Positions 7,921 through 40,110 of a DNA stretch of 64,000 bases are shown here, piece by piece; the first letter of the stretch is position 1; every line of letters begins with the position of its first letter. Source of the DNA: Sandaracinaceae bacterium (GTDB lineage Bacteria > Myxococcota_A > Polyangia > Polyangiales > Sandaracinaceae); NCBI GenBank assembly GCA_040218145.1, contig JAVJQK010000028.1:1-64000 (forward strand), given 5' to 3'. The notes below the pieces were generated by a model. The model was not told where the DNA came from and did no database searches. It was given only the letters and a program-made list of their open reading frames with translations. The translations under genes and the position numbers were made by a program.

Positions 7921-8358
7921 GATGGCGGCTGCTCGCCGCTTCGCTGGCTCCGCTGGCCTCGGTCGCGCTTACTCGCCTCGCTGGCCTCGCTCGCCTTCGC
8001 TGGCCTCGCTCGCCTGGCCTCGCTCGCCTTCGCTGGCCTCGGTCGCGCTCCGCTGGCCTCGGTCGCGCTTGGCTGGCCGCGCTCGCGCTTCGCGCCCGCC
8101 TCGCTCGCCTCGGAAAAGCTGACCGCCTTGGCCGCATGGCGGCTCCTCGCGGCTGGCGGCTGGCGGCTGGCCGCTCGCTCTTGCTCGGCGGCCTGGCGGC
8201 TGCTCGGTCGCGCTTCACTGGCCTCGGTCGCGCTTCACTGGCCTCGCTCGCCTTCGCTGGCCTCGCTCGCGCTTCGCTGGCCTGGGTCGCGCTTCGCTCG
8301 CCTGGGTCGCGCTTCGCTGGCCTGGGTCGCGGTTCGCTGGCCTCGCTCGCCTTCGCTG
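7921..8358. repeat. Degenerate GC-rich short repeats
   Basis: This stretch is a series of imperfect units such as TGGCCTCGCTCGCGCTTCGC of roughly 20-27 bases, open in several frames but with no protein-like composition. I see no gene in it. It continues the repeat island that runs to about 10290. Confidence 0.6.
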
Positions 8359-8496
8359 GTCGCCCGCGCCTCGGGCGGGCCGTCGCTGCCAGCGATGGAG
8401 GTGGCCGTTCGCGCGCCCTCGCTCGCCGTCGCCCGCGCCTCGGGCGGGCCGTCGCTGCCAGCGATGGAGGTGGCCGTTCGCGTGCCCTCGCTCGCG
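8359..8496. repeat. 69-bp tandem duplication
   Basis: Two direct copies of 69 bases (8359-8427 and 8428-8496) differ at only a few positions; each starts GTCGCCCGCGCCTCGGGCGG and includes CGTCGCTGCCAGCGATGGAG. 69 is a multiple of three, but the open frames across it give arginine/alanine-rich sequence without any recognisable domain. Confidence 0.8.
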
Positions 8497-8588
8497 GTCG
8501 CTCGCTGAACTGGATGGGTGGCGCCCGTTCGCTCCCGGTCGCTCGCGTTTCACGCTGCGCTCGCCTCGCTCGCGTCTCAGGACAGGGA

Positions 8589-9162
8589 GCGAGTCGCTGG
8601 CGACGCTGGCGGGGAGGTGGCGTGGGGGGCCGGTTCGCTGGCGACGCTCGCCGGGCCAAAGTTTGGCGAAAAGACTCGCTGGCGACTCTCGTGGGCTTGT
8701 GGCGAAAGTCCGTGACTCGCTGGTGACTCTCGTGGAGTCCTCGCGGAGACGCGCGACTGGCCGGCGAGGCTCATGCGCTCATCATGAGCGGCCAGGACTC
8801 ACTGGTGAGGCTCATGCGCTCAGTGCGGGCGGCCGGGACTCGCTGGTGAGGCTCATGTGCTCAGTGCGGGCGGCCGGGACTCGCTGGTGAGGCTCGTACG
8901 CTCGGTGCGGGTGGCCGGGACTCGCTGGTGAGCCTTGTACGCTCGATGCGGGCGGCCGGGACTCGCCGGCGAGAGCTGCGCGTTCATCCCGGGAGGTCGC
9001 GGCTCGCCCGCCAGGCGAGCGCGCTCAGCGCGAGGTGGTGCGACTCGCTGGCGAGCCTCTGTCGTTCACGGGGGGCGACCGTGCCTCGCTGGCGAGGCCC
9101 GCGCGCTCTCCGTGGTGAACTGAGGCTCGCCGGCGAGGCTCCTGGCGGCCGGGGGACTCGAG
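8589..9162. repeat. 41-bp tandem array, 14 copies
   Basis: Copies start at 8589 and every 41 bases through 9122 without slippage. The most conserved core is ACTCGCTGGYGAGGCTC, an imperfect palindrome whose arms change together: CTCGC/GCGAG in most units, CTCAC/GTGAG at 8794 and the perfect CTCGCCGGCGAG at 8958 and 9122. The central units (8794-8957) are most alike, the outer ones degenerate. Since 41 is not a multiple of three, the array does not encode a repeated peptide. It is not a CRISPR because the whole unit is conserved. Confidence 0.85.
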
Positions 9163-9239
9163 GATCGCGGCTGATGTTCTCCCGGGCTCGCGGCTCGGTC
9201 TCCGGGGTGGCGGGCGCGGTTCGTGAGGGCCCGCTCGCC

Positions 9240-9840
9240 TTTCGTGGGGCGGACTCGGCCGCGGAGACGGGGCGGACTCGGTCGCGGAGTCGGTCGCGGA
9301 CTCGCCCGCGCTCGCGGACTCGGCGACGGTCGTGGACTCGATTGCGGTCGCGGCACGGTCGCGGACTCGGACTCGGACTCGGTCGCGGACTCGGTCGCGG
9401 ACTCGGACTCGGTCGCGGACTCGGACTCGGACTCGGACTCGGACTCGGACTCGGACTCGGACTCGGACTCGGACTCGGACTCGGACTCGGACTCGGACTC
9501 GGACTCGGGAACGGCAGCGGACGCGGCAGCGGTTGCGGCCACGGTCGCGGAGTCGGCCACGGACTCGGACTCGGACTCGGGAACGCTCGCGGTCGCGGTC
9601 GCGGCAGCGGACGCGGCAGCGGTTGCGGACGCGGTCGCGGAGTCGGACTCGGCTGCGGTTGCGGACGCGGTTGCGGACTCGGTCGCCGACTCGGTTCAGG
9701 TCGCGGAGTCGGCCGCGGGGGTCGGCGCGGCTGCGGACTCGGCTGCGGACTCCGGCGCGGCCTCGGTCGCGAACTCCGGCGCGGTCTCGGTCGCGGACTC
9801 CGGCGCGGTGGCGGTCGCGGTGGCGGTCGCGGACTCGACT
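9240..9840. repeat. Hexanucleotide repeat tract with (GGACTC)15
   Basis: Imperfect GCGGACTCG and CGGTCGCGGA units surround a perfect run of 15 GGACTC copies (9417-9506). All frames are open and yield DS, RT or GL dipeptide repeats, which I regard as artefacts of the repeat. A similar tract lies at 18761-19130. Confidence 0.8.
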
Positions 9841-9869
9841 CGCACTCGGCCGAGGAGCTGGGGGGATAT

Positions 9870-9925
9870 GGGGGCGCTAAGTTGACTTGTCGAGTTGTTC
9901 GCGAACAAGTCAACCTAGCGTCCCC
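9870..9925. repeat. Large palindrome element, degenerate copy
   Basis: The left arm (GCGCTAAGTTGACTTGT) and right arm (ACAAGTCAACCTAGCGTCCCC) are inverted with a few mismatches around an inner perfect palindrome TTGTTCGCGAACAA. It is the relative of the perfect 50-bp palindrome at 18708-18757 and, like it, sits at the edge of a hexanucleotide tract. Confidence 0.75.
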
Positions 9926-10041
9926 TCGAGCCGGTCGCTTCACCTCGATCATCTTCAGCTCCCGGTAGGCCATTCGGAGTCGTCGCACGCCCGCACGTGC
10001 GTCACTCCGGACGGGGTCCGGTCACCGAACCGAGGGAGCCC

Positions 10042-31901: not shown

Positions 31902-32645
31902 TCAGCGCGCCGTGAAGACGAGCCGGCCGAAGCGCTCGGGGACGTGGAAATCGCCGACCATCGGAGGGGACCAGCCCACGCCGCCCTGGCCCTCCGGGCG
32001 TGCATCCAGCACGTAGAGGGCCAAGCGCCAGGTGTCCCCCGCGGACGGCGGCCCGGCGGGCGTCTGCCCTGCGTCGAACGCGCTCCAGGGGATGCGCAGC
32101 TCCGCCGTGTAGCCCTCGTCGGCCGCGTCGTCGTTCAGGGTCCCGCGCAGGGCGATCGCGCCTTCGATCCCGCTCTCCCAGCGCAGGTGGCCGAAGGGCT
32201 GGGGCACGCGGCGGCTGTCGTAGCGGGTGTCGAAGGTCTCGCCGCTCGGCGCGAGCTGCAGCTCGAAGTAGTTCAAGCCGTCCCCGTCGGGGTCGATCAT
32301 CAGCTCGACCGTGTCCTGGGTCCAGAGGTGCGGGTCCTGGCCGCTCAGGTCGGCGCGCAGGTAGTCGTCCTCCACCTCGAACGCGGCGTAGAGGAACTCG
32401 GCGTCCCAGGTGAGCCGGGCGCGGGTGCGGGGCTGCCCGGGCGCGCCGGTCATGGTCTGCACGAAGGGCTCGGTCCAGGGCGCGTCCTGCCAGGCCGGGT
32501 CGTCGAGGCGGCCGTCGATCACGGGCGCGCGGCTCGCGCGCGGCGCGGAGTAGGAGGGGATGTCCGTGCGAGGCTCTGCGCAGGTGCACCCCGCACTGCA
32601 CAGTATCCCACCCGAGAGCATGGCGAGCATGACCCAGCGGCTCAC
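31902..32645 (-). CDS. CBM9-like lipoprotein
   Basis: The 247-residue protein begins with a lipoprotein leader (LSGGILCSAGC) and then a CBM9-type beta-sandwich. It has APVIDGRLDDPAWQDAPWT at the start, WDAEFLYAAFEVEDDYL, WTQDTVELMIDPDGDG and GYTAELRIPWSAF, the blocks seen in carbohydrate-binding family 9-like domains of outer-surface proteins. The GTG start overlaps the thioesterase stop (GTGA), so it is translated with that operon. In a lipid-synthesis operon an envelope lipoprotein suggests that the product goes to the envelope (inference). Confidence 0.75.
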   Translation of the reverse strand: MSRWVMLAMLSGGILCSAGCTCAEPRTDIPSYSAPRASRAPVIDGRLDDPAWQDAPWTEPFVQTMTGAPGQPRTRARLTWDAEFLYAAFEVEDDYLRADLSGQDPHLWTQDTVELMIDPDGDGLNYFELQLAPSGETFDTRYDSRRVPQPFGHLRWESGIEGAIALRGTLNDDAADEGYTAELRIPWSAFDAGQTPAGPPSAGDTWRLALYVLDARPEGQGGVGWSPPMVGDFHVPERFGRLVFTAR

Positions 32646-33070
32646 TCGAACGCCTCGCGGAGCGACGGGTCCATCGAGCAGATGCGCTGCTTCGCGAGGT
32701 CCACGCAGGCGCAGGTGATCTCGGCGCTCGTCAGCCGCTCCTCGCCTCGCCAGATGCGGTAGTCGAAGCGGATCTTGGCGCGGTTGATCACGCCCACCCA
32801 GGCCTCGACCTCGAGCTCGTCGTCGAAGCGCGCGGGCCGCTCGTAGCGGATCCGGACCTCGGCCACCGGGAGCCCCTTGCCGACCTCGCGCTCGAAGCGC
32901 CGATAGTCGACGCCGCGCGCGCGGAGCAGCTCCACGCGGGCTTGCTCCAGGAAACGCAAGTAGGCGGCGTGGTGCACCACGCCGCCTTGATCGGTGTCCA
33001 CGTACTGCACGCGGACACCGTACCGAAAAGGAACGGACCGAAAAGGAACGTACCGAGAAGGATCGGCCAA
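32642..33070 (-). CDS. 4HBT acyl thioesterase (YbgC/FadM-like)
   Basis: This hot-dog-fold protein of 142 residues has VQYVDTDQGGVVHHAAYLRF near residues 21-40. The Asp residues there include the catalytic one of the YbgC class, and the conserved helix EQARVELLRARG follows. It should cleave acyl-CoA or acyl-ACP thioesters. The start appears to be TTG at 33070, because the family needs the FRYGVRV strand and no ATG or GTG lies earlier in frame. A short direct repeat (GTTCCTTTTCGGT) codes part of the N-terminus. It is 16 bases after the ACP gene. Confidence 0.8.
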   Translation of the reverse strand: MADPSRYVPFRSVPFRYGVRVQYVDTDQGGVVHHAAYLRFLEQARVELLRARGVDYRRFEREVGKGLPVAEVRIRYERPARFDDELEVEAWVGVINRAKIRFDYRIWRGEERLTSAEITCACVDLAKQRICSMDPSLREAFE

Positions 33071-33086
33071 ACGCGCCGAGGGCGAG

Positions 33087-33338
33087 CTACTCGGCCGCGT
33101 CGGCGGCCGCGAGCTTGCGGCTGACGAGGTTGTAGACGCGCGTGAAGTCGGTCATCTCGGTCAGCTCGTCCTCGGGGATGGAGAGCTTGTAGGTGCGCTC
33201 CACCTCCGCGACGATCTCGATGGCCATCATCGAGTCGATGCCGAGCTGATCGAACGGGGTCTCGTCCGGGATCTCGTCGACCTCGCTCACCTCCGAGATG
33301 ATCTCGCGAAGCTTGTCCCTGAGTGCGTCGTCCGACAT
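33087..33338 (-). CDS. Acyl carrier protein 1
   Basis: The 83-residue protein has the phosphopantetheine site LGIDSMMAIEI with Ser36, flanked by acidic helices typical of type II ACPs. DSM rather than DSL is found in ACPs of specialised fatty acid and polyketide systems. It is encoded between the second ACP and the thioesterase, all on the minus strand, and probably carries the acyl chain activated by the FAAL. Confidence 0.9.
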   Translation of the reverse strand: MSDDALRDKLREIISEVSEVDEIPDETPFDQLGIDSMMAIEIVAEVERTYKLSIPEDELTEMTDFTRVYNLVSRKLAAADAAE

Positions 33339-33433
33339 GGATTCCTCTTCCTGCTCCGAAGGGATCGAAGGATCCCCTCACATTTGTCAGCACGGACCGT
33401 GCCGACTCCGTACGGGAGTCGGCGCCGAACGGT

Positions 33434-33673
33434 TCACGCCATCCGGTTCTCGACCAGCTCGAGGAGCTGACCGACGGTCTGGATCCCGACGAGCTGCTCG
33501 TCGGGGATCTGGACGCCGAGCTCGCGCTCCATGGCGCCGACCAGCTCCAGCGTGCTGAGCGAGTCGAGACCGAGCTCCTGAATGTTGGAGTCCTGGGTCA
33601 CGCCGGAGAAGTCCTTCTCCGCGATCTCCGTCGCCATCCGCTGAAACATCTCGAACAGTTCCGACCGCTGCAT
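33434..33673 (-). CDS. Acyl carrier protein 2
   Basis: The 79-residue protein has LGLDSLSTLELVGAME with Ser38 as phosphopantetheine site. It starts at ATG 33673 after ACGGAGCGAACG; an upstream TTG is less likely. The sequence differs clearly from ACP 1 (for example it has the helix ELVGAMERELGVQIPD), so the two are not recent duplicates and may serve different enzymes, such as FAAL versus ketosynthase. Confidence 0.9.
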   Translation of the reverse strand: MQRSELFEMFQRMATEIAEKDFSGVTQDSNIQELGLDSLSTLELVGAMERELGVQIPDEQLVGIQTVGQLLELVENRMA

Positions 33674-33767
33674 CGTTCGCTCCGTCAACCTAGTGGTCCG
33701 AGGCCCACCGATTGCGGGCCGAATTTACTCGTGGGGTGGCGCGCCGTAAAGGCTCGCCGTGGAAGGC

Positions 33768-35471
33768 TCAGCCGCCGTCGCGGCTCTCCGCTGGAGCCGG
33801 GTGTGAGGTCAGCTCGCCGCGCTCGTAGAGCAGCTGCGTCTTGCGGCGCTGGTGCTTGCCGCTCGAGGTCTTGGGGAGGGTGCCCACGGGCGCGATCACC
33901 ACGTCGGCGACCTGCAGACCGAAGTCCGAGAAGATCGTCTCGGCGATCTCCTTGCGGAGCCGATCGGCGTCGCCGCGGTTCGCCTCCGCCATCATCACGA
34001 GCTCTTCCGTCCCATCACGGACGACGCTGAATGCACAGACGTTGCCACGTCGAACTCCGTCGAGCTCGCCCACCGCCCACTCGAGGTCCTGGGGGTAGTG
34101 GTTGGCGCCCTTGATGATGATCAGGTCCTTGATGCGTCCGCAGATGTAGACGTTGCCGTCGACCGTGTACCCGAGGTCACCGGTGTGAAGCCAGCCGTCA
34201 CGGATGCCGGCCGCGGTGGCCTCTTCGTTGCGGAAGTAGCCCGGCGTCACGCTCGGGCCGCGGGCCACGATCTCGCCGACGCGTCGGTCCTCGAGCGTCT
34301 CGCCCTGCTCGTCGACGATCTTCAGCTCGTGGTCGGGGAAGGGCACGCCGCAGCTGACGACCTCGAGCGCGTCGGTGGCGCCCTCCTCGGCCGGGGCGGC
34401 GATCCCGTCGCGCATCGCGGCCGGGTCGACGCGGTCGACGATCATCTCGTCGTCGCGCGGGTGGAAGGTGATCGCCAGGCAGCTCTCGGCCATGCCGTAG
34501 CTGGGCAGGAGCGCGTTGGGCGAGAACCCGCACGCGGCGAAGCGATCGGCGAACTCGAGCAGGGTCTTGGCCCGGATGGGCTCGGCGCCGCAGCCCGCGA
34601 TGCGCAGGGTGCTCAGGTCGAGCGCCTCGAGGTCCTTGTCGCGCACGCGTTTGGTCACGAGCTGGTAGGCGAAGTTCGGCGCGTAGGTGATCGTGCCCTT
34701 GTGCTTCGTGATCAGCTCGAGCCACATGCGCGGCATGCGCGCGAAGTGGGCGGTGGGCATCAGCACGACCGGCAGGTCCACGATGAGCGTGCCGAGCACG
34801 AAGCCGATCAGGCCCATGTCGTGGAAGAGCGGGAGCCAGCTCACACCGACGTCGTCCGGGGTGCGGTTCAGCCCGCTCGGGCCCAGGAACGCGGTCGCGT
34901 TCGCCACGAGGTTCCCGTGGGTGACCATCACGCCCTTGGGCTTGCTCGTGCTGCCGCTCGTGAACTGCAGGAAGCAGAGATCGTCGGGGCGGATGGCGGG
35001 CCGCTCGAACGCAGGCGCCGGGCCCTCGAAGCACTCCGGCGAGAAGAGGATCTGTCGCCCCTCGAGCTCCGGGCGGGTCCGCAGCTTCTCCACGACGTCG
35101 CGGTTCTGCTCCATGCAGATCAGCGCCTTGGCGTCCGCCGCCTCGACGATGTGGGCGAGGATGTCGAGGTAGGCGTCGATCGCCTTGAAGGTCGCCTGCG
35201 GGTACATCGGCACGGGCACGAAGCCGCCGACCGAGGCGCCGAGGAAGCTCAGGACGAACTCGTGGTTCTCCGGGAGCAGCAGCGCGACGCGGTCGCCCTT
35301 CTCGAGGCCGGCCGCGCTCAGGAACGCCGCGCGCCGCTCCGCCTCCGCGCGCATGGCGGCGTACGGGTAGTAGCGCTCCTTCCGATCCAATCCGAGGAAT
35401 CGAAAGCCGCGCTCCTCCCCTTCGGGGAGGCGGTAGAGCGCCTCCACCAAAGTCTGTGGCTGGGGAGCCAT
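33768..35471 (-). CDS. Fatty acyl-AMP ligase (FAAL)
   Basis: The 567-residue protein is an adenylating enzyme. Its P-loop-like motif FTSGSTSKPKGVMVTHGNL is near residue 185-205, then PLFHDMGLIG, YGMAESCLAITF, HTGDLGYTVDGNVYICGRIKDL and the catalytic Lys in PKTSSGKHQRRKT at the end. Extra sequence after YGMAE and the SCGVPFPDHELKIVD turn fit FAALs, which load fatty acids onto ACP through acyl-AMP instead of CoA. It is the first gene of a minus operon (FAAL-ACP-ACP-thioesterase-lipoprotein) with a good promoter right before it. Confidence 0.85.
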   Translation of the reverse strand: MAPQPQTLVEALYRLPEGEERGFRFLGLDRKERYYPYAAMRAEAERRAAFLSAAGLEKGDRVALLLPENHEFVLSFLGASVGGFVPVPMYPQATFKAIDAYLDILAHIVEAADAKALICMEQNRDVVEKLRTRPELEGRQILFSPECFEGPAPAFERPAIRPDDLCFLQFTSGSTSKPKGVMVTHGNLVANATAFLGPSGLNRTPDDVGVSWLPLFHDMGLIGFVLGTLIVDLPVVLMPTAHFARMPRMWLELITKHKGTITYAPNFAYQLVTKRVRDKDLEALDLSTLRIAGCGAEPIRAKTLLEFADRFAACGFSPNALLPSYGMAESCLAITFHPRDDEMIVDRVDPAAMRDGIAAPAEEGATDALEVVSCGVPFPDHELKIVDEQGETLEDRRVGEIVARGPSVTPGYFRNEEATAAGIRDGWLHTGDLGYTVDGNVYICGRIKDLIIIKGANHYPQDLEWAVGELDGVRRGNVCAFSVVRDGTEELVMMAEANRGDADRLRKEIAETIFSDFGLQVADVVIAPVGTLPKTSSGKHQRRKTQLLYERGELTSHPAPAESRDGG

Positions 35472-35481
35472 GGGCGCGCGG

Positions 35482-35510
35482 TTTCTATGGGGTCGCCGAT
35501 GTGCTGTCAA
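35482..35510 (-). promoter_or_regulatory. FAAL promoter
   Basis: On the minus strand, TTGACA (35510-35505), 17 bases, then TAGAAA (35487-35482). The ATG at 35471 is only 10 bases downstream, leaving a very short leader. Confidence 0.65.
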
Positions 35511-35547
35511 GCCCACGAAAACCGGCCATGTGGCCTGTTTCGCGGCC

Positions 35548-35577
35548 TTGCAGCGCCCCGACCGGCCGAGCTATAGG
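35548..35577 (+). promoter_or_regulatory. KS-operon promoter
   Basis: TTGCAG (35548-35553), 18 bases, TATAGG (35572-35577), 11 bases before the ATG at 35589. It lies about 40 bases from the FAAL promoter on the opposite strand; the shared region may coordinate both operons. Confidence 0.5.
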
Positions 35578-35588
35578 CACCGCGATTC

Positions 35589-36857
35589 ATGGGCCGCGTC
35601 TTCATCACCGGGATGGGGGTCGTCAGCTCGCTGGGCTTCGGTCGGAAGCCGTACTGGGAGGCGCTCGTCGAGGGCCGATCCGGCATCAGCGAGGTGAGCC
35701 TCTTCGACACCTCCAACCTTCCGCGCAACCTGGGCGGTGAGGTCAAGGGCTTCGTCGCGACCGACTACATGTCGGAGCAGGAGGCGCGCCGCATGGGCCG
35801 CTGCTCGGCGTTCAGCGTCGCCGCGGCGCGCATGGCGGCCGAGGACGCGGGGCTGACGGAGAAGGAGCTGGGCGGAGAGCGCACCGCGGTCGTGGTCGGG
35901 ACCACGATGGGCGAGGCGAACGTGCTCGGCGAGCTCCAGCAGGCCTGGATCCACGAGGGCACGGGCGCGGTCCGGCCGGCCAAGCTCCCGCGCTACGGGA
36001 CGACGCTCCTGCCCATCCACGTGGCGCGCGCGTTCGGCGCGAGCGGCATGGTGCAGACGCTCCCCGCGGCGTGCGCGGCGGGCAACTACGCGATCGGCTT
36101 CGCGGCCGACCAGATCCGCTCCGGGCGCGCCGACGTCGCGATCACCGGCGCGGTCGAGATCATCGAGAAGCTCGAGTACGCGGGCTTCGTCCGGCTCGGC
36201 GCGATGTCGCCCGATCTCTGCCAGCCCTTCGACCAGAACCGGAAGGGGCTCATCCTCGGCGAGGGCTCGACCATGCTCATCCTCGAGAGCGAGGAGGCGG
36301 TGGTCCGCCGCGGCGCGACGCCGCTCGCCGAGGTGGGCGGCTACGGGCTCGCGTGCGACGCGCACCACATCACGCGGCCGCACCCCGAGGGCGAGGGCAG
36401 CATCTCCGCCATGCGCCAGGCGATCCGAGCGAGCGGGCTGACGGTCGACGACATCGATCACATCAACGCGCACGGCACGGGCACCGCGGCCAACGACGCG
36501 ATCGAGGCCAAGGTCATCCACGAGATATTCGGCGACCGCGCGCTGCCCGTGACGTCGATCAAGAGCATGATCGGCCACTGCATGGGCGCGTCGAGCGCGA
36601 TGGAGTCGGTCGCCTGCGTGATGACGCTGCAGACCGGGATCATCCCGCCGACCATCAACTACGAGACGCCCGATCCGGACTGCCCGGTGCACGTCGTCGC
36701 GAACGAGAAGCGCGAGGCGAAGGTGGACGTCGTGCTCAACAACGCGCTCGCCTTCGGCGGCTACGACGCGGTGGTGTGCTTCGCGAACCCGGGCCGCCTG
36801 CCCGAAGGCACGGGCGAAGCGCCGGACGCGGAGTCGGACGTGGGGGGGGCGCAGTGA
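35589..36857 (+). CDS. Beta-ketoacyl-ACP synthase (FabF-like)
   Basis: The 422-residue ketosynthase has the full Cys-His-His triad: Cys162 in PAACAAGNYAIG, His295 in NAHGTGT and His330 in SIKSMIGHCMGA, with Lys325. It should perform decarboxylative Claisen condensation on ACP-bound substrates. The length and motifs match FabF/type II polyketide KS. The stop overlaps the next gene (GTGA), so the two are made together, as in KS-CLF pairs. Confidence 0.9.
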   Translation: MGRVFITGMGVVSSLGFGRKPYWEALVEGRSGISEVSLFDTSNLPRNLGGEVKGFVATDYMSEQEARRMGRCSAFSVAAARMAAEDAGLTEKELGGERTAVVVGTTMGEANVLGELQQAWIHEGTGAVRPAKLPRYGTTLLPIHVARAFGASGMVQTLPAACAAGNYAIGFAADQIRSGRADVAITGAVEIIEKLEYAGFVRLGAMSPDLCQPFDQNRKGLILGEGSTMLILESEEAVVRRGATPLAEVGGYGLACDAHHITRPHPEGEGSISAMRQAIRASGLTVDDIDHINAHGTGTAANDAIEAKVIHEIFGDRALPVTSIKSMIGHCMGASSAMESVACVMTLQTGIIPPTINYETPDPDCPVHVVANEKREAKVDVVLNNALAFGGYDAVVCFANPGRLPEGTGEAPDAESDVGGAQ

Positions 36858-38050
36858 GGCCGCTCGCGATCACGGGCGTCGGGCAGGTCTCGCCGCTCGG
36901 GCTCGGGCTCGAGGCGCTGCGCGAGGCGTTCGCGGATCCCGAGGCGGCGGCGAAGCGCGCCTTCACGGGCGAGCCCGAGGTGCTGACCCGGGAGAAGTTC
37001 CCCGAGGCGCACTCGGCCGAGGTCTGGGGCTTCGATCCGAACGCGCACCTCGGCGACAAGGGCCACCGCAACTTCGACCGGCTCACGAAGTACCTCATCG
37101 TCGCGGCCAAGCTCGCGCTCGAGGACGCGGGGGTGAAGAAGGACGGCGAGTTCGTCGGCGCGCTCGCGCCCGAGCAGGTCGGCATCTGCAGCTCCACCGC
37201 GTACGGCTCGCTCGACTCGATCACCGAGCTCAACCTCGTCGCGGAGCTCGAGGACCCCCGGTACATCAACCCGGCGCGCTTCCCGAACACGGTGATCAAC
37301 GCGGCCGCGGGCTACGTGAGCATCTGGGAGGATCTCCGGGCGCCGAACGCGACCATCGTCGACGGCAACTGCGGCTCCATCGACGCCATCCTCAGCTGCG
37401 AGACGCACCTCGCCCATCGGCGCGCGGACGCGTTCCTCGTGGGCGGCGGCGACGTGATCACCGAGGTGCTCTACCTCGCGCTGCGTCGGCTCGGCGCCAT
37501 CGCGGGCGGCTCCGCGAAGTGGGCGCCCGGCGCGCGCGACAGCCAGGGCCTGCACCTCGGGGAGGGCGCCGCGTACCTGCTCGTCGAGCGCGAGGCCGAG
37601 GCGAAGGCGCGCGGCGCGCGGATCCGGGCGCGCGTCCTCGGCTACGGCACCGCGTTCGACCCGCCCAAGCGCCAGGCGCGCCTGCTCCACGCGTCGAGCA
37701 GCGCGGTGACCCGCGCGGTGCGCGGCGCGCTGAGCGACGCGAAGCTCGAGGCGAAGGACGTCGACGTGGTCTGCTCCGCCGCGGCCGGGCTGCGCCCCTT
37801 CGACGGCGCGGAGCTGTCCGGCCTCAGCGAGGTCCTCGGCGGCGTGCCCGTCGCGGCGCCGAAGGCGCTCTGGGGCGAGAGCTTCAGCGGCTCGGCCGCC
37901 CTCGGCATGGCCTCGGCCGTGACATGGATCGAGGGCGCCACGCCCGGACCGATGGTCGCCGCGAGCGAGGCCCCCTCGAAGGTGAAGAACGTCGTGGTGA
38001 CGAGCGTCGGCTACTACGGCAACGTCTCCGCCGTCGTCATCGGCGCTTGA
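36854..38050 (+). CDS. Ketosynthase-like partner (CLF-like), catalytically altered
   Basis: The 398-residue protein has the thiolase fold (ITGVGQVSPLGLGLEALREA start, HLGEGAAYLLVERE). A Cys is present at 173 in DGNCGSIDA, but the two His motifs are gone: the usual HGTGT region reads CSAAAGLRPFDGAELS, and the GHxxxAAG region reads WGESFSGSAALG. It is therefore unlikely to be a full condensing enzyme and resembles chain-length factors or KS-beta subunits that pair with an active KS. It starts at GTG inside the KS stop. Confidence 0.8.
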   Translation: MRPLAITGVGQVSPLGLGLEALREAFADPEAAAKRAFTGEPEVLTREKFPEAHSAEVWGFDPNAHLGDKGHRNFDRLTKYLIVAAKLALEDAGVKKDGEFVGALAPEQVGICSSTAYGSLDSITELNLVAELEDPRYINPARFPNTVINAAAGYVSIWEDLRAPNATIVDGNCGSIDAILSCETHLAHRRADAFLVGGGDVITEVLYLALRRLGAIAGGSAKWAPGARDSQGLHLGEGAAYLLVEREAEAKARGARIRARVLGYGTAFDPPKRQARLLHASSSAVTRAVRGALSDAKLEAKDVDVVCSAAAGLRPFDGAELSGLSEVLGGVPVAAPKALWGESFSGSAALGMASAVTWIEGATPGPMVAASEAPSKVKNVVVTSVGYYGNVSAVVIGA

Positions 38051-38051
38051 C

Positions 38052-38783
38052 TCACTCCAGGCCGGCTTCGGGGTCGTAGACCGGGTCGGTCGCGGGGGGA
38101 GGCGCGGCGCCGCCGCCGGCCCCTCCAGCGCCGCCGCCATTGGTGGGCTGCCAGGTCGGCTCGCCAGCGGGTGCAGGCGCCGCGCCGCCGCCTGGCGACT
38201 CGCCGCCCCCGATCCAGCCGACGATCGAGAACCCGAGCAGGATCTGGAAGCCCGCTCGCTCCGCGTCGCCGCGGTAGAGCATGTTGATCTGGCCGAACGG
38301 GCTGAAGCTGAACGAGTCGGTGGCGAAGACGTGCACGCCGCCGAACGCGCCCGCCACGATGGACGCGTAGGGGTCGCGGAAGTCGGGGAAGTCGGCCGTG
38401 AAGCCGAGCTGTCCGCCGACGAACGCGGCAAGCGGGTCGCCCATCGGGAACACCGCTTCCACGAAGGGGAGCAGCGAGATCTGCCCCGCGATCGAGTCGC
38501 CCGGAGTCGCGGGGTCGACCAGCGCGAAGCCGAAGCTGGTCCTGGCGCCGATGGCCAGGTTGTCGATGACCATGTAGCTGGCCCCGAAGCCCAGCGACGA
38601 GGGCGTCACGCCGACCTGGTAGACGCCCACGACGTCCGGAAAGAAGCTGATCCCCACGACGTTGTTGTCGTTGTGAAGCCTCAGCTGCCCTGCGCTCGGC
38701 TGGGCCGCAGCGACGCTGGAGACGGTGAGCACGAGGGCGGCGCCACAGACGGCGAGCGCGGTTTGTCTGGTGTCGAGTTTCAT
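38052..38783 (-). CDS. Secreted beta-barrel-like protein
   Basis: The 243-residue protein has a signal peptide (LAVCGAALVLTVSSVAAAQ) and an alternating-pattern beta body of about 160 residues (YMVIDNLAIGARTSFGFALV and GGVHVFATDSFSFSPFGQIN), suggesting an outer-membrane barrel. A Gly/Ala/Pro-rich tail follows. The ATG follows GGGAGAGG. It lies on the minus strand between the KS pair and the oxoamine synthase; the tail suggests it is surface exposed. No known barrel family is recognised. Confidence 0.65.
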   Translation of the reverse strand: MKLDTRQTALAVCGAALVLTVSSVAAAQPSAGQLRLHNDNNVVGISFFPDVVGVYQVGVTPSSLGFGASYMVIDNLAIGARTSFGFALVDPATPGDSIAGQISLLPFVEAVFPMGDPLAAFVGGQLGFTADFPDFRDPYASIVAGAFGGVHVFATDSFSFSPFGQINMLYRGDAERAGFQILLGFSIVGWIGGGESPGGGAAPAPAGEPTWQPTNGGGAGGAGGGAAPPPATDPVYDPEAGLE

Positions 38784-38880
38784 CTGCCTCTCCCGGCGCC
38801 ATCCTATCCGCTCCTCTCCCGCAGAGGAAAAATCCGTCCACTGGCCGAGCGGCTCCGATCCCGTCATGGTTCCGCCGCAC

Positions 38881-40110
38881 ATGAGCTGGATTCACGAAAA
38901 GGCGCACGCCGAGCTGGCCCGGATTCGCGAGGCCAAGGAGAAGCAGGTCTACCCCTTCTTCAAGCCCTTCGAGTCGGGCGGCCTGCACACCACGATCGAC
39001 GGCAACCCGATCGTCAACTTCAGCAGCAACGACTACCTCGGGCTGACCAATCACCCGAAGGTGAAGGAGGCGGCGAAGAAGGCGGTCGACCAGTACGCGG
39101 TCGGGCTCAGCAGCTCGCGCGTGCAGGCGACCACGGTCGCGCACGTGGAGCTCGAGGAGCGGCTCGCGAAGTGGTTCGGCGCCGAGGCGTGTCTGCTCTT
39201 CACGACCGGCTACCAGGCGATGGTGGGCACCATCATGTCCTTCGCCGACAAGGACACCACGCTCATCCTCGACAACCTCGCCCACGCCTGCATCCTCGAC
39301 GGCACCTTCCTCGCCGCCGGGACGCCGGCCAGCGCGCCCGAGGTCCGGTTCTTCAACCACAACTCGGTCCGCTCGCTCGAGCGCGTCCTCAAGACCAAGC
39401 AGCGCGAGAAGGCGCTCGTGCTCATCGAGGGCATCTACTCGCTCGACGGCGACAAGGCGGTCATCAAGGACATCATCGAGGTCTGCGAGCGCTACGACGC
39501 GGTCCTGTGTCTCGACGACGCGCACGGCACGGGCACGCTCGGCGCCCACGGGCGCGGCATCCTCGAAGAGCAGGGCCTCGAGGGCCGCGCGCCGCTCGTG
39601 ATCAGCACCTTCAGCAAGACCTTCGGCGGCATCGGCGGCATCCTCTGGGGCGACCGCGACGTGGTCGATCACGTCAAGCACCGCGCGCGCTCGTTCCTCT
39701 TCAGCGCGTCGCTCCCGGTCCCGATCGTCCAGGCGGCGGCGACCATCCTGACGATGCTCGAAGAGGAGGGCCCGGCGCTGGTCAGCGAGCTGCACGAGAA
39801 GGCGCAGTACTTCCGCGGGCGGCTCCTCGAGATCGGCTTCGACCTCGGCAAGAGCGACACCCACATCATGCCCGTGATGTGCAACGACGAGCGCAAGGCG
39901 CTCTTCATGCACGTCGCCTTGATGGAGAACGGCGTGATGATGGTGCCGATCACCTACCCGGGCGTGAAGAAGGGCGAGGAGCGCCTCCGCGTGAACATCA
40001 CCCGCGGGCACACCCGCGAGGACATGGACAAGGCGCTCGAGCTGCTCGAGATGTACGGCGAGGCGTTCTTCGTGCTCAGCGGAGAAGACCTCGGCCCGAT
40101 GGAGCTCTGA
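38881..40110 (+). CDS. Alpha-oxoamine synthase (AONS/SPT/CqsA-like)
   Basis: The 409-residue PLP enzyme has NFSSNDYLGLTNHP, GLSSSRVQATT, LFTTGYQAMVGTI, CLDDAHGTGTLGAHGRG and STFSKTFGGIGG with PLP Lys246. This is the fold-type I family of KBL, AONS, serine palmitoyltransferase and the autoinducer synthase CqsA, all of which join an acyl thioester to an amino acid with loss of CO2. The exact substrates cannot be read from sequence. bioF-type function is possible, but bioB is elsewhere and the neighbours here are FAAL, ACP and KS genes. Its 3' end overlaps the convergent TPR gene by 35 bases. Confidence 0.85.
   Translation: MSWIHEKAHAELARIREAKEKQVYPFFKPFESGGLHTTIDGNPIVNFSSNDYLGLTNHPKVKEAAKKAVDQYAVGLSSSRVQATTVAHVELEERLAKWFGAEACLLFTTGYQAMVGTIMSFADKDTTLILDNLAHACILDGTFLAAGTPASAPEVRFFNHNSVRSLERVLKTKQREKALVLIEGIYSLDGDKAVIKDIIEVCERYDAVLCLDDAHGTGTLGAHGRGILEEQGLEGRAPLVISTFSKTFGGIGGILWGDRDVVDHVKHRARSFLFSASLPVPIVQAAATILTMLEEEGPALVSELHEKAQYFRGRLLEIGFDLGKSDTHIMPVMCNDERKALFMHVALMENGVMMVPITYPGVKKGEERLRVNITRGHTREDMDKALELLEMYGEAFFVLSGEDLGPMEL

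What the first reader, a model, noticed from the sequence alone, without database searches (positions are those of the whole stretch)
31902..40110. Split FAAL-ACP-ACP-thioesterase / KS-CLF / oxoamine synthase gene set
Seen: on the minus strand, a FAAL (33768-35471), two unlike ACPs, a thioesterase and an envelope lipoprotein in tight order. A divergent operon encodes an intact KS and a His-less KS partner, and an alpha-oxoamine synthase lies nearby. Known: FAALs load fatty acids on ACP, KS/CLF pairs extend them, and oxoamine synthases (SPT, CqsA, AONS) condense acyl thioesters with amino acids. Inference: the set could make an aminoketone or sphingoid-like lipid, or a hydrophobic signal molecule, which I cannot match to a characterised pathway.
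Basis: partly seen in the sequence, partly recalled or inferred. Interest (0 to 1): 0.8.

Follow-up and report, generated by a model that had tools for sequence, protein, structure and literature searches.

The report
Sphingolipid-type locus with added ketosynthase pair
A gene set kept through most of one order of soil and water bacteria looks like a sphingolipid-making locus in which the usual acyl-loading enzyme, carrier protein and serine-condensing enzyme have been joined by a dedicated chain-building enzyme pair, and it stands in for the ordinary sphingolipid enzyme of its relatives.

Summary
The window has FAAL–ACP1–ACP2–thioesterase–lipoprotein on the minus strand. Divergent to it are KS–CLF and, just beyond, an alpha-oxoamine synthase (AOS). 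Across 144 genomes of the window's order the AOS is in 94 and the KS in 77 of these; 52 of the 54 pairs on one contig lie within 5 kb. The small genomes of one genus keep only AOS+ACP2. The AOS is not BioF or Kbl: its clade is sister to characterised serine palmitoyltransferases (SPT; 100/99 support without the longest branches, 88/93 with PKS-linked AOSs added). The canonical SPT of the order occurs in 41 other genomes and never together with this AOS. Homologues of bacterial ceramide synthase occur with both types, the window's own genome included, so this AOS is the likeliest long-chain-base synthase there. FAAL/ACP2/AOS match the known AasR/AcpR/SPT set. New are the KS–CLF pair and the second ACP. 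Most likely product: a sphingoid (or deoxy-sphingoid) base whose acyl chain is extended by KS–CLF. The closest precedent is the type I PKS–SPT pair SgaAB of Pseudomonas. Chain, amino acid and final lipid are inferred. A split-RedL route to alkylpyrroles is less likely but not excluded.

The parts
33768..35471 (-). Fatty acyl-AMP ligase (FAAL), AasR-like acyl-ACP synthetase
   Evidence: PF00501 E 2e-73; closest solved chains are FAALs; 36% identity to E. coli B AasR, E 4e-104
33434..33688 (-). Acyl carrier protein 1 (ACP1; LDSL motif)
   Evidence: PF00550 E 4.6e-13; beside FAAL in many relatives
33087..33338 (-). Acyl carrier protein 2 (ACP2; IDSM motif), partner of the AOS
   Evidence: PF00550 E 6.4e-14; the only ACP kept beside the AOS in genus g9 (L018, L031, L055)
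32642..33070 (-). YbgC/FadM-type hotdog thioesterase (optional part)
   Evidence: PF13279 E 1e-19; TIGR00051 above cut-off; present in a minority of relatives
31902..32645 (-). CBM9-domain lipoprotein; family-specific, probably not part of the core
   Evidence: PF06452 E 8.9e-18; found only in the two nearest loci L036 and L037
35589..36857 (+). Ketosynthase with intact Cys-His-His
   Evidence: PF00109/PF02801; catalytic Cys in 32/32 and both His in all 31 rows without a gap there; best solved match is KS 9s5h_B, 394 bits
36854..38050 (+). KS-like partner (chain-length-factor type): Cys kept, both His lost
   Evidence: PF00109 E 7.4e-19; second His is Glu in 24/24 relatives; best solved match is the CLF-like chain 9s5h_C
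38881..40110 (+). Alpha-oxoamine synthase, SPT-like clade 1 (long-chain-base synthase)
   Evidence: PF00155 E 1.4e-47; sister of SPTs, 100/99; 63-88% identity across the order

Best explanation
The locus is the first-step module of a sphingolipid-type pathway with its own chain-extension unit. FAAL activates a fatty acid and loads it on a dedicated ACP. The KS-CLF heterodimer extends the acyl chain with malonyl units, the beta-carbon being reduced by housekeeping fatty acid synthase enzymes, since no dedicated reductase is linked. The finished acyl chain is presented on ACP2 to the AOS, which condenses it with an amino acid (serine by homology) with loss of CO2 to give a 3-oxo-sphinganine-like base. 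Ceramide-synthase (YghO/bCerS) and, in many relatives, CerR homologues encoded elsewhere N-acylate and reduce it. Shown by sequence: gene content, synteny, SPT kinship, replacement of the canonical SPT, and presence of bCerS. Inferred: enzyme activities, acyl chain, amino acid, order of steps and the role of KS-CLF.
For: (1) AOS clade 1 with its sister clade 3 is the sister group of characterised SPTs (E. coli B, Sphingomonas, Sphingobacterium) apart from Kbl, BioF and ThAOS, support 100/99. Canonical SPT clade 2 of the order lies within the SPTs. (2) Of 144 genomes, 94 have clade 1, 41 have clade 2, none has both. (3) A homologue of E. coli YghO, a ceramide-synthesis acyltransferase, is in 133/144 genomes, including 86 of the 94 with clade 1 and the own genome (G000:C97:24077-25222, 36% identity to YghO, E 1e-78); in G009 it lies beside the clade-1 AOS. 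(4) CerR homologues sit next to bCerS in genomes with clade 1 (G054, G020, G033, G119) as in those with clade 2. (5) FAAL+ACP+SPT is the proven AasR-AcpR-SPT set (PMC9386255); the window FAAL is 36% identical to AasR. (6) Other AOSs of the own genome are Kbl, BioF-like and an AOS-GNAT fusion; G004, G013 and G020 have only one other AOS. (7) Genus g9 keeps AOS+ACP2 without KS-CLF, so ACP2 is the likely acyl donor. (8) Four relatives carry an acyl-ACP desaturase (PF03405) between the two ACP genes. (9) A PKS feeding an SPT-type AOS is proven for SgaAB (PMC12134224).
Against: No lipid data. No CerR homologue was found at E 1e-55 in the window's own family, so the reduction step there is unassigned. 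No ketoreductase, dehydratase or enoyl reductase is linked, so chain extension must borrow housekeeping enzymes. FAAL is absent from the KS/AOS neighbourhood in about half of the loci examined. The genome also has an AOS-GNAT fusion that could make a base. bCerS is near-universal in the order, so its presence alone is weak. The co-occurrence counts do not correct for shared ancestry. RedL- and PigH-type AOSs were not in the tree; with PKS-linked AOSs added the fork that joins clade 1 to SPTs drops to 88/93.
Confidence: 0.68

Rival explanations
1. Split RedL/PigJ-PigH logic: FAAL loads ACP1, KS-CLF condenses the acyl group with malonyl-ACP2, and the AOS uses the unreduced beta-ketoacyl-ACP2 with glycine or serine. 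The aminodiketone closes to an alkyl-hydroxypyrrole or pyrrolinone.
For: The gene set matches the domain set of RedL (ligase-ACP-KS-ACP-AOS; own knowledge). Two unlike ACPs and no linked reductase fit a single unreduced extension.
Against: The AOS is kept with ACP2 alone where KS-CLF is missing (genus g9). It is mutually exclusive with canonical SPT and its genomes keep bCerS, which a pyrrole would not need. No RedK-like enzyme is linked. The AOS is sister to SPTs.
Confidence: 0.12
2. The AOS with FAAL and ACP2 makes a sphingoid base exactly as AasR-AcpR-SPT does, and KS-CLF with ACP1 makes a separate product (such as a polyene or a modified fatty acid) that merely shares the neighbourhood, or supplies the N-acyl chain.
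For: AOS+ACP2 occur without KS-CLF in one genus. KS-CLF best matches polyene-type KS-CLF pairs such as Iga11-Iga12.
Against: KS was found with the AOS in 77 of 79 genomes, and 52 of the 54 pairs on one contig are within 5 kb. In Sandaracinus-like genomes where the locus has broken up, KS, CLF and AOS still lie within about 12 kb.
Confidence: 0.13
3. The AOS is a biotin or threonine-pathway enzyme (BioF/Kbl) and the neighbourhood is chance.
For: NCBIfam's best-scoring models are bioF and gly_Cac_T_rel, both below cut-off.
Against: The tree excludes it from Kbl and BioF. The own genome has separate Kbl (beside threonine dehydrogenase) and BioF-like proteins. Synteny with KS-CLF holds across the order.
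Confidence: 0.02

Closest known systems
Rhodobacterial sphingolipid operon aasR-cerR-acpR-spt plus bCerS (Caulobacter CC_1162-1165/CC_1154; E. coli B yghO locus)
   Same: Dedicated acyl-AMP ligase, dedicated ACP and an SPT-clade AOS; bCerS homologue in the genome, CerR homologue in many relatives
   Different: Has no KS, CLF, second ACP or thioesterase. The AOS is a different clade (30% identity to E. coli Spt). bCerS and CerR are not in the locus.
PfSgaAB (Pseudomonas fluorescens MYb115), type I PKS-derived sphinganines
   Same: A polyketide-type chain builder next to an SPT-type AOS
   Different: SgaA is one iterative type I PKS that builds the chain; here KS and CLF are separate (type II), with FAAL and free ACPs.
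RedL / PigJ-PigH (prodiginine pathways)
   Same: Ligase, ACP, KS, ACP and oxoamine synthase activities in one set
   Different: Those are fused or partly fused proteins that make pyrroles. Here the AOS groups with SPTs and is tied to bCerS genomes. Not tested directly.
Highly reducing type II KS-CLF (Iga11-Iga12; PDB 9s5h)
   Same: Intact KS with a His-less partner; best structural-database sequence matches. The 9s5h partner chain also has Gly-Glu at the second His site.
   Different: No linked reductase or dehydratase; genes are tied to an AOS. The source organism of 9s5h was not identified here.

Membership tests
Serine palmitoyltransferase (SPT) | Falls with characterised SPTs, apart from Kbl, BioF and other AOS | tested here: met
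   Sister clade to SPTs, 100/99 without the longest branches, 87/98 and 88/93 in the other two trees; a sister clade, not inside the characterised SPTs
Serine palmitoyltransferase (SPT) | Passes an SPT equivalog model | tested here: not met
   Below the cut-off of NF047600, NF047599 and NF047603; the order's canonical clade-2 SPT also falls below them
Serine palmitoyltransferase (SPT) | Condenses L-serine with an acyl thioester to 3-oxo-sphinganine | not testable with these tools
   Needs enzyme assay
AasR-AcpR-SPT sphingolipid system | Linked acyl-ACP synthetase and dedicated ACP | tested here: met
   FAAL 36% identical to AasR; ACP2 beside FAAL/AOS in most loci; FAAL missing from the neighbourhood in about half
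AasR-AcpR-SPT sphingolipid system | bCerS and CerR in the genome | tested here: inconclusive
   bCerS in 86/94 genomes with clade 1, including the own genome; CerR beside bCerS in many, but not found in the window's family
KS-CLF heterodimer (type II PKS) | Adjacent intact KS and His-less partner | tested here: met
   Conserved active sites in 32 KS and 24 CLF sequences; GTGA overlap of the two genes
RedL/PigH oxoamine synthase set | AOS uses beta-ketoacyl-ACP to make a pyrrole | not testable with these tools
   No reference sequence in hand; gene context argues against it
BioF (biotin synthesis) | Groups with BioF and passes TIGR00858 | tested here: not met
   331 bits against a cut-off of 426; outside BioF in all trees

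The most novel reading that the evidence does not exclude
KS-CLF hands an unreduced beta-ketoacyl-ACP2 straight to the AOS, so that a whole bacterial order makes a new class of membrane or signal lipid (alkyl-hydroxypyrroles or 5-oxo sphingoid bases, which ceramide synthase may then acylate) in place of ordinary sphingolipids.
Probability: 0.12. Interest if true: 0.85.

Novelty: new variant of a known kind. Interest (0 to 1): 0.58.

Why it matters
If right, most of this order of Myxococcota has replaced the textbook SPT by a distinct SPT-like enzyme coupled to a KS-CLF pair. That would be a type II counterpart of the recently found PKS-derived sphingolipids, and it predicts unusual sphingoid chains in species not known to make sphingolipids. 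It also gives a defined gene set (ACP2+AOS as core, FAAL/KS/CLF as extension) with a one-experiment test by lipidomics, and a marker that surveys based on canonical SPT sequences would tend to miss.

Tried and rejected
BioF/Kbl identity of the AOS: rejected by the tree and by separate BioF-like and Kbl paralogues. The epimerase beside AOS+ACP2 in genus g9 as general CerR: rejected, its close relatives are almost confined to that genus. Aryl-polyene/flexirubin cluster: the dehydratase, ketoreductase and export genes expected there (own knowledge) did not recur near the locus. Recurring neighbours Ile-tRNA synthetase, ThiG, ThiE and an ABC ATPase were judged housekeeping. Paper search for the PDB entry 9s5h gave nothing useful. 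Paper searches for a type II KS-linked sphingolipid locus in myxobacteria found none, only SgaAB. AOS residues near the serine carboxylate site were compared by eye and judged not diagnostic.
Full report
What is there. The window lies in an 11.06 Mb genome (G000, contig C28) of a Polyangiales-like order: the nearest complete relative, G002, has one contig of 10,327,335 bases, which I recall as the size of Sandaracinus amylolyticus, and named relatives of the AOS include Polyangia and Sandaracinaceae MAGs. The KS keeps its catalytic Cys in 32 of 32 relatives and both His in all rows without a gap there. The CLF keeps the Cys in 21 of 24, has lost the first His, and has Glu at the second His position in 24 of 24.

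Is it a unit? Neighbourhoods of 30-odd relatives show KS-CLF-AOS in a row, divergent to FAAL-ACP1-ACP2, with thioesterase in some and an acyl-ACP desaturase (PF03405) between the ACPs in four. In an even sample of 144 genomes of the order, the AOS clade (63% identity or more) is in 94 and the KS (49% or more) in 79; 77 have both, two have KS alone and 17 have AOS alone, 16 of these in one genus of small genomes (g9). In 54 genomes both lie on one contig, 52 of them within 5 kb. In three g9 genomes examined, the AOS is kept with a divergent ACP2 and nothing else of the set. So ACP2+AOS is the core and KS-CLF-FAAL-ACP1 the extension. In a phylum-wide sample the AOS clade and the KS clade stop at the order, dropping to 47% and 49% outside.

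What the AOS is. Sequence models are indecisive: bioF, a general BioF/Kbl family, SPT and others all match below cut-off. Solved structures put SPT of Sphingobacterium first by a small margin. Three trees place the window's clade 1 with a second clade (clade 3) as sister of bona fide SPTs, apart from Kbl, BioF and ThAOS. Support is 87/98 with all rows, 100/99 without the longest branches, and 88/93 when type I PKS-linked AOSs are added. The own genome's other AOSs are a Kbl beside threonine dehydrogenase, a BioF-like protein and an AOS fused to a GNAT domain.

Replacement of the canonical SPT. Most of the remaining genomes of the order carry a different AOS (clade 2, 36-40% identical to the window's) that falls inside the SPTs. 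In G038 it lies beside a GNAT and an epimerase (L071). These two are homologous to E. coli B YghO (39%, E 6e-98) and CerR (30%, E 7e-39), enzymes of the known ceramide pathway (PMC9386255). Clade 2 at 67% identity or more is in 41 genomes, clade 1 in 94, and no genome has both. Fisher P is 1.5e-27, but this ignores shared ancestry and is only a description. YghO homologues are in all 41 clade-2 genomes and in 86 of the 94 clade-1 genomes, including the own genome at C97:24077-25222 (36% to YghO). In G009 the YghO homologue is the neighbour of the clade-1 AOS. CerR homologues sit beside YghO homologues in clade-1 genomes such as G054, G020, G033 and G119, but none reached E 1e-55 in the window's own family. 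The simplest reading is that clade 1 makes the long-chain base for a ceramide pathway where clade 2 is missing.

Mechanism. In Rhodobacteria a dedicated acyl-ACP synthetase (AasR) loads a dedicated ACP (AcpR), and SPT uses the acyl-AcpR (PMC9386255). Window FAAL, ACP2 and AOS map on these; the FAAL is 36% identical to E. coli B AasR, which RefSeq itself names fatty acyl-AMP ligase. KS-CLF is the addition. Its nearest solved relatives are KS-CLF pairs, not FabF: KS 394 bits to 9s5h_B, CLF 146 bits to 9s5h_C. A KS-CLF pair without linked reductases could borrow those of fatty acid synthesis and extend the chain on an ACP; that step is inference. A PKS that feeds an SPT-type AOS is proven in Pseudomonas (SgaAB; PMC12134224), with a type I PKS. 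The present set would be a type II counterpart with FAAL priming.

Rivals. The gene set equals the domain set of RedL, which makes an alkylpyrrole from a beta-ketoacyl-ACP (own knowledge). The AOS+ACP2 core without KS, the exclusion with canonical SPT and the retained ceramide synthase argue for a sphingoid base, but RedL and PigH sequences were not in hand, so this is not closed. KS-CLF may also serve a separate product; the tight linkage speaks against it.

Limits. The sample of genomes holds many MAGs, and absences in incomplete ones mean little. FAAL lies in the KS/AOS neighbourhood in about half of the loci only, although a FAAL of 40-81% identity exists elsewhere in most other genomes. 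No lipid data exist here.

Noticed in passing
L073 (G129:C26), L083 (G045:C139): AOS clade 3 (45-49% to the window's) lies with an epimerase, a FabG-like reductase, an ACP, an HMG-CoA-synthase-like protein and a KS; in G045 a second ceramide-synthase homologue is about 11 kb away. Looks like a further, beta-branching, polyketide-sphingolipid type locus.
   Followed up: partly
L060:4826-6940 (G000:C6): An AOS fused to a GNAT (PF13480) domain in the own genome; long open frames at weak AOS matches in G125 and G135 may be similar fusions. Function unknown; may couple base formation and N-acylation.
   Followed up: partly
L047:5674-6555, and the same place in L026, L030, L046: An acyl-ACP desaturase (PF03405) gene sits between ACP1 and ACP2 in four relatives, which suggests unsaturated chains in those species.
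   Followed up: yes
window 38052-38882 (-): Probable secreted or outer-membrane protein with signal peptide between CLF and AOS; family-specific, no Pfam match.
   Followed up: no
window 8001-10000: Strong AT skew (-0.33) in this 2 kb, unlike the rest of the window.
   Followed up: no
G000:C110:64508-66163: A second FAAL, 51% identical to the window's, elsewhere in the genome.
   Followed up: no
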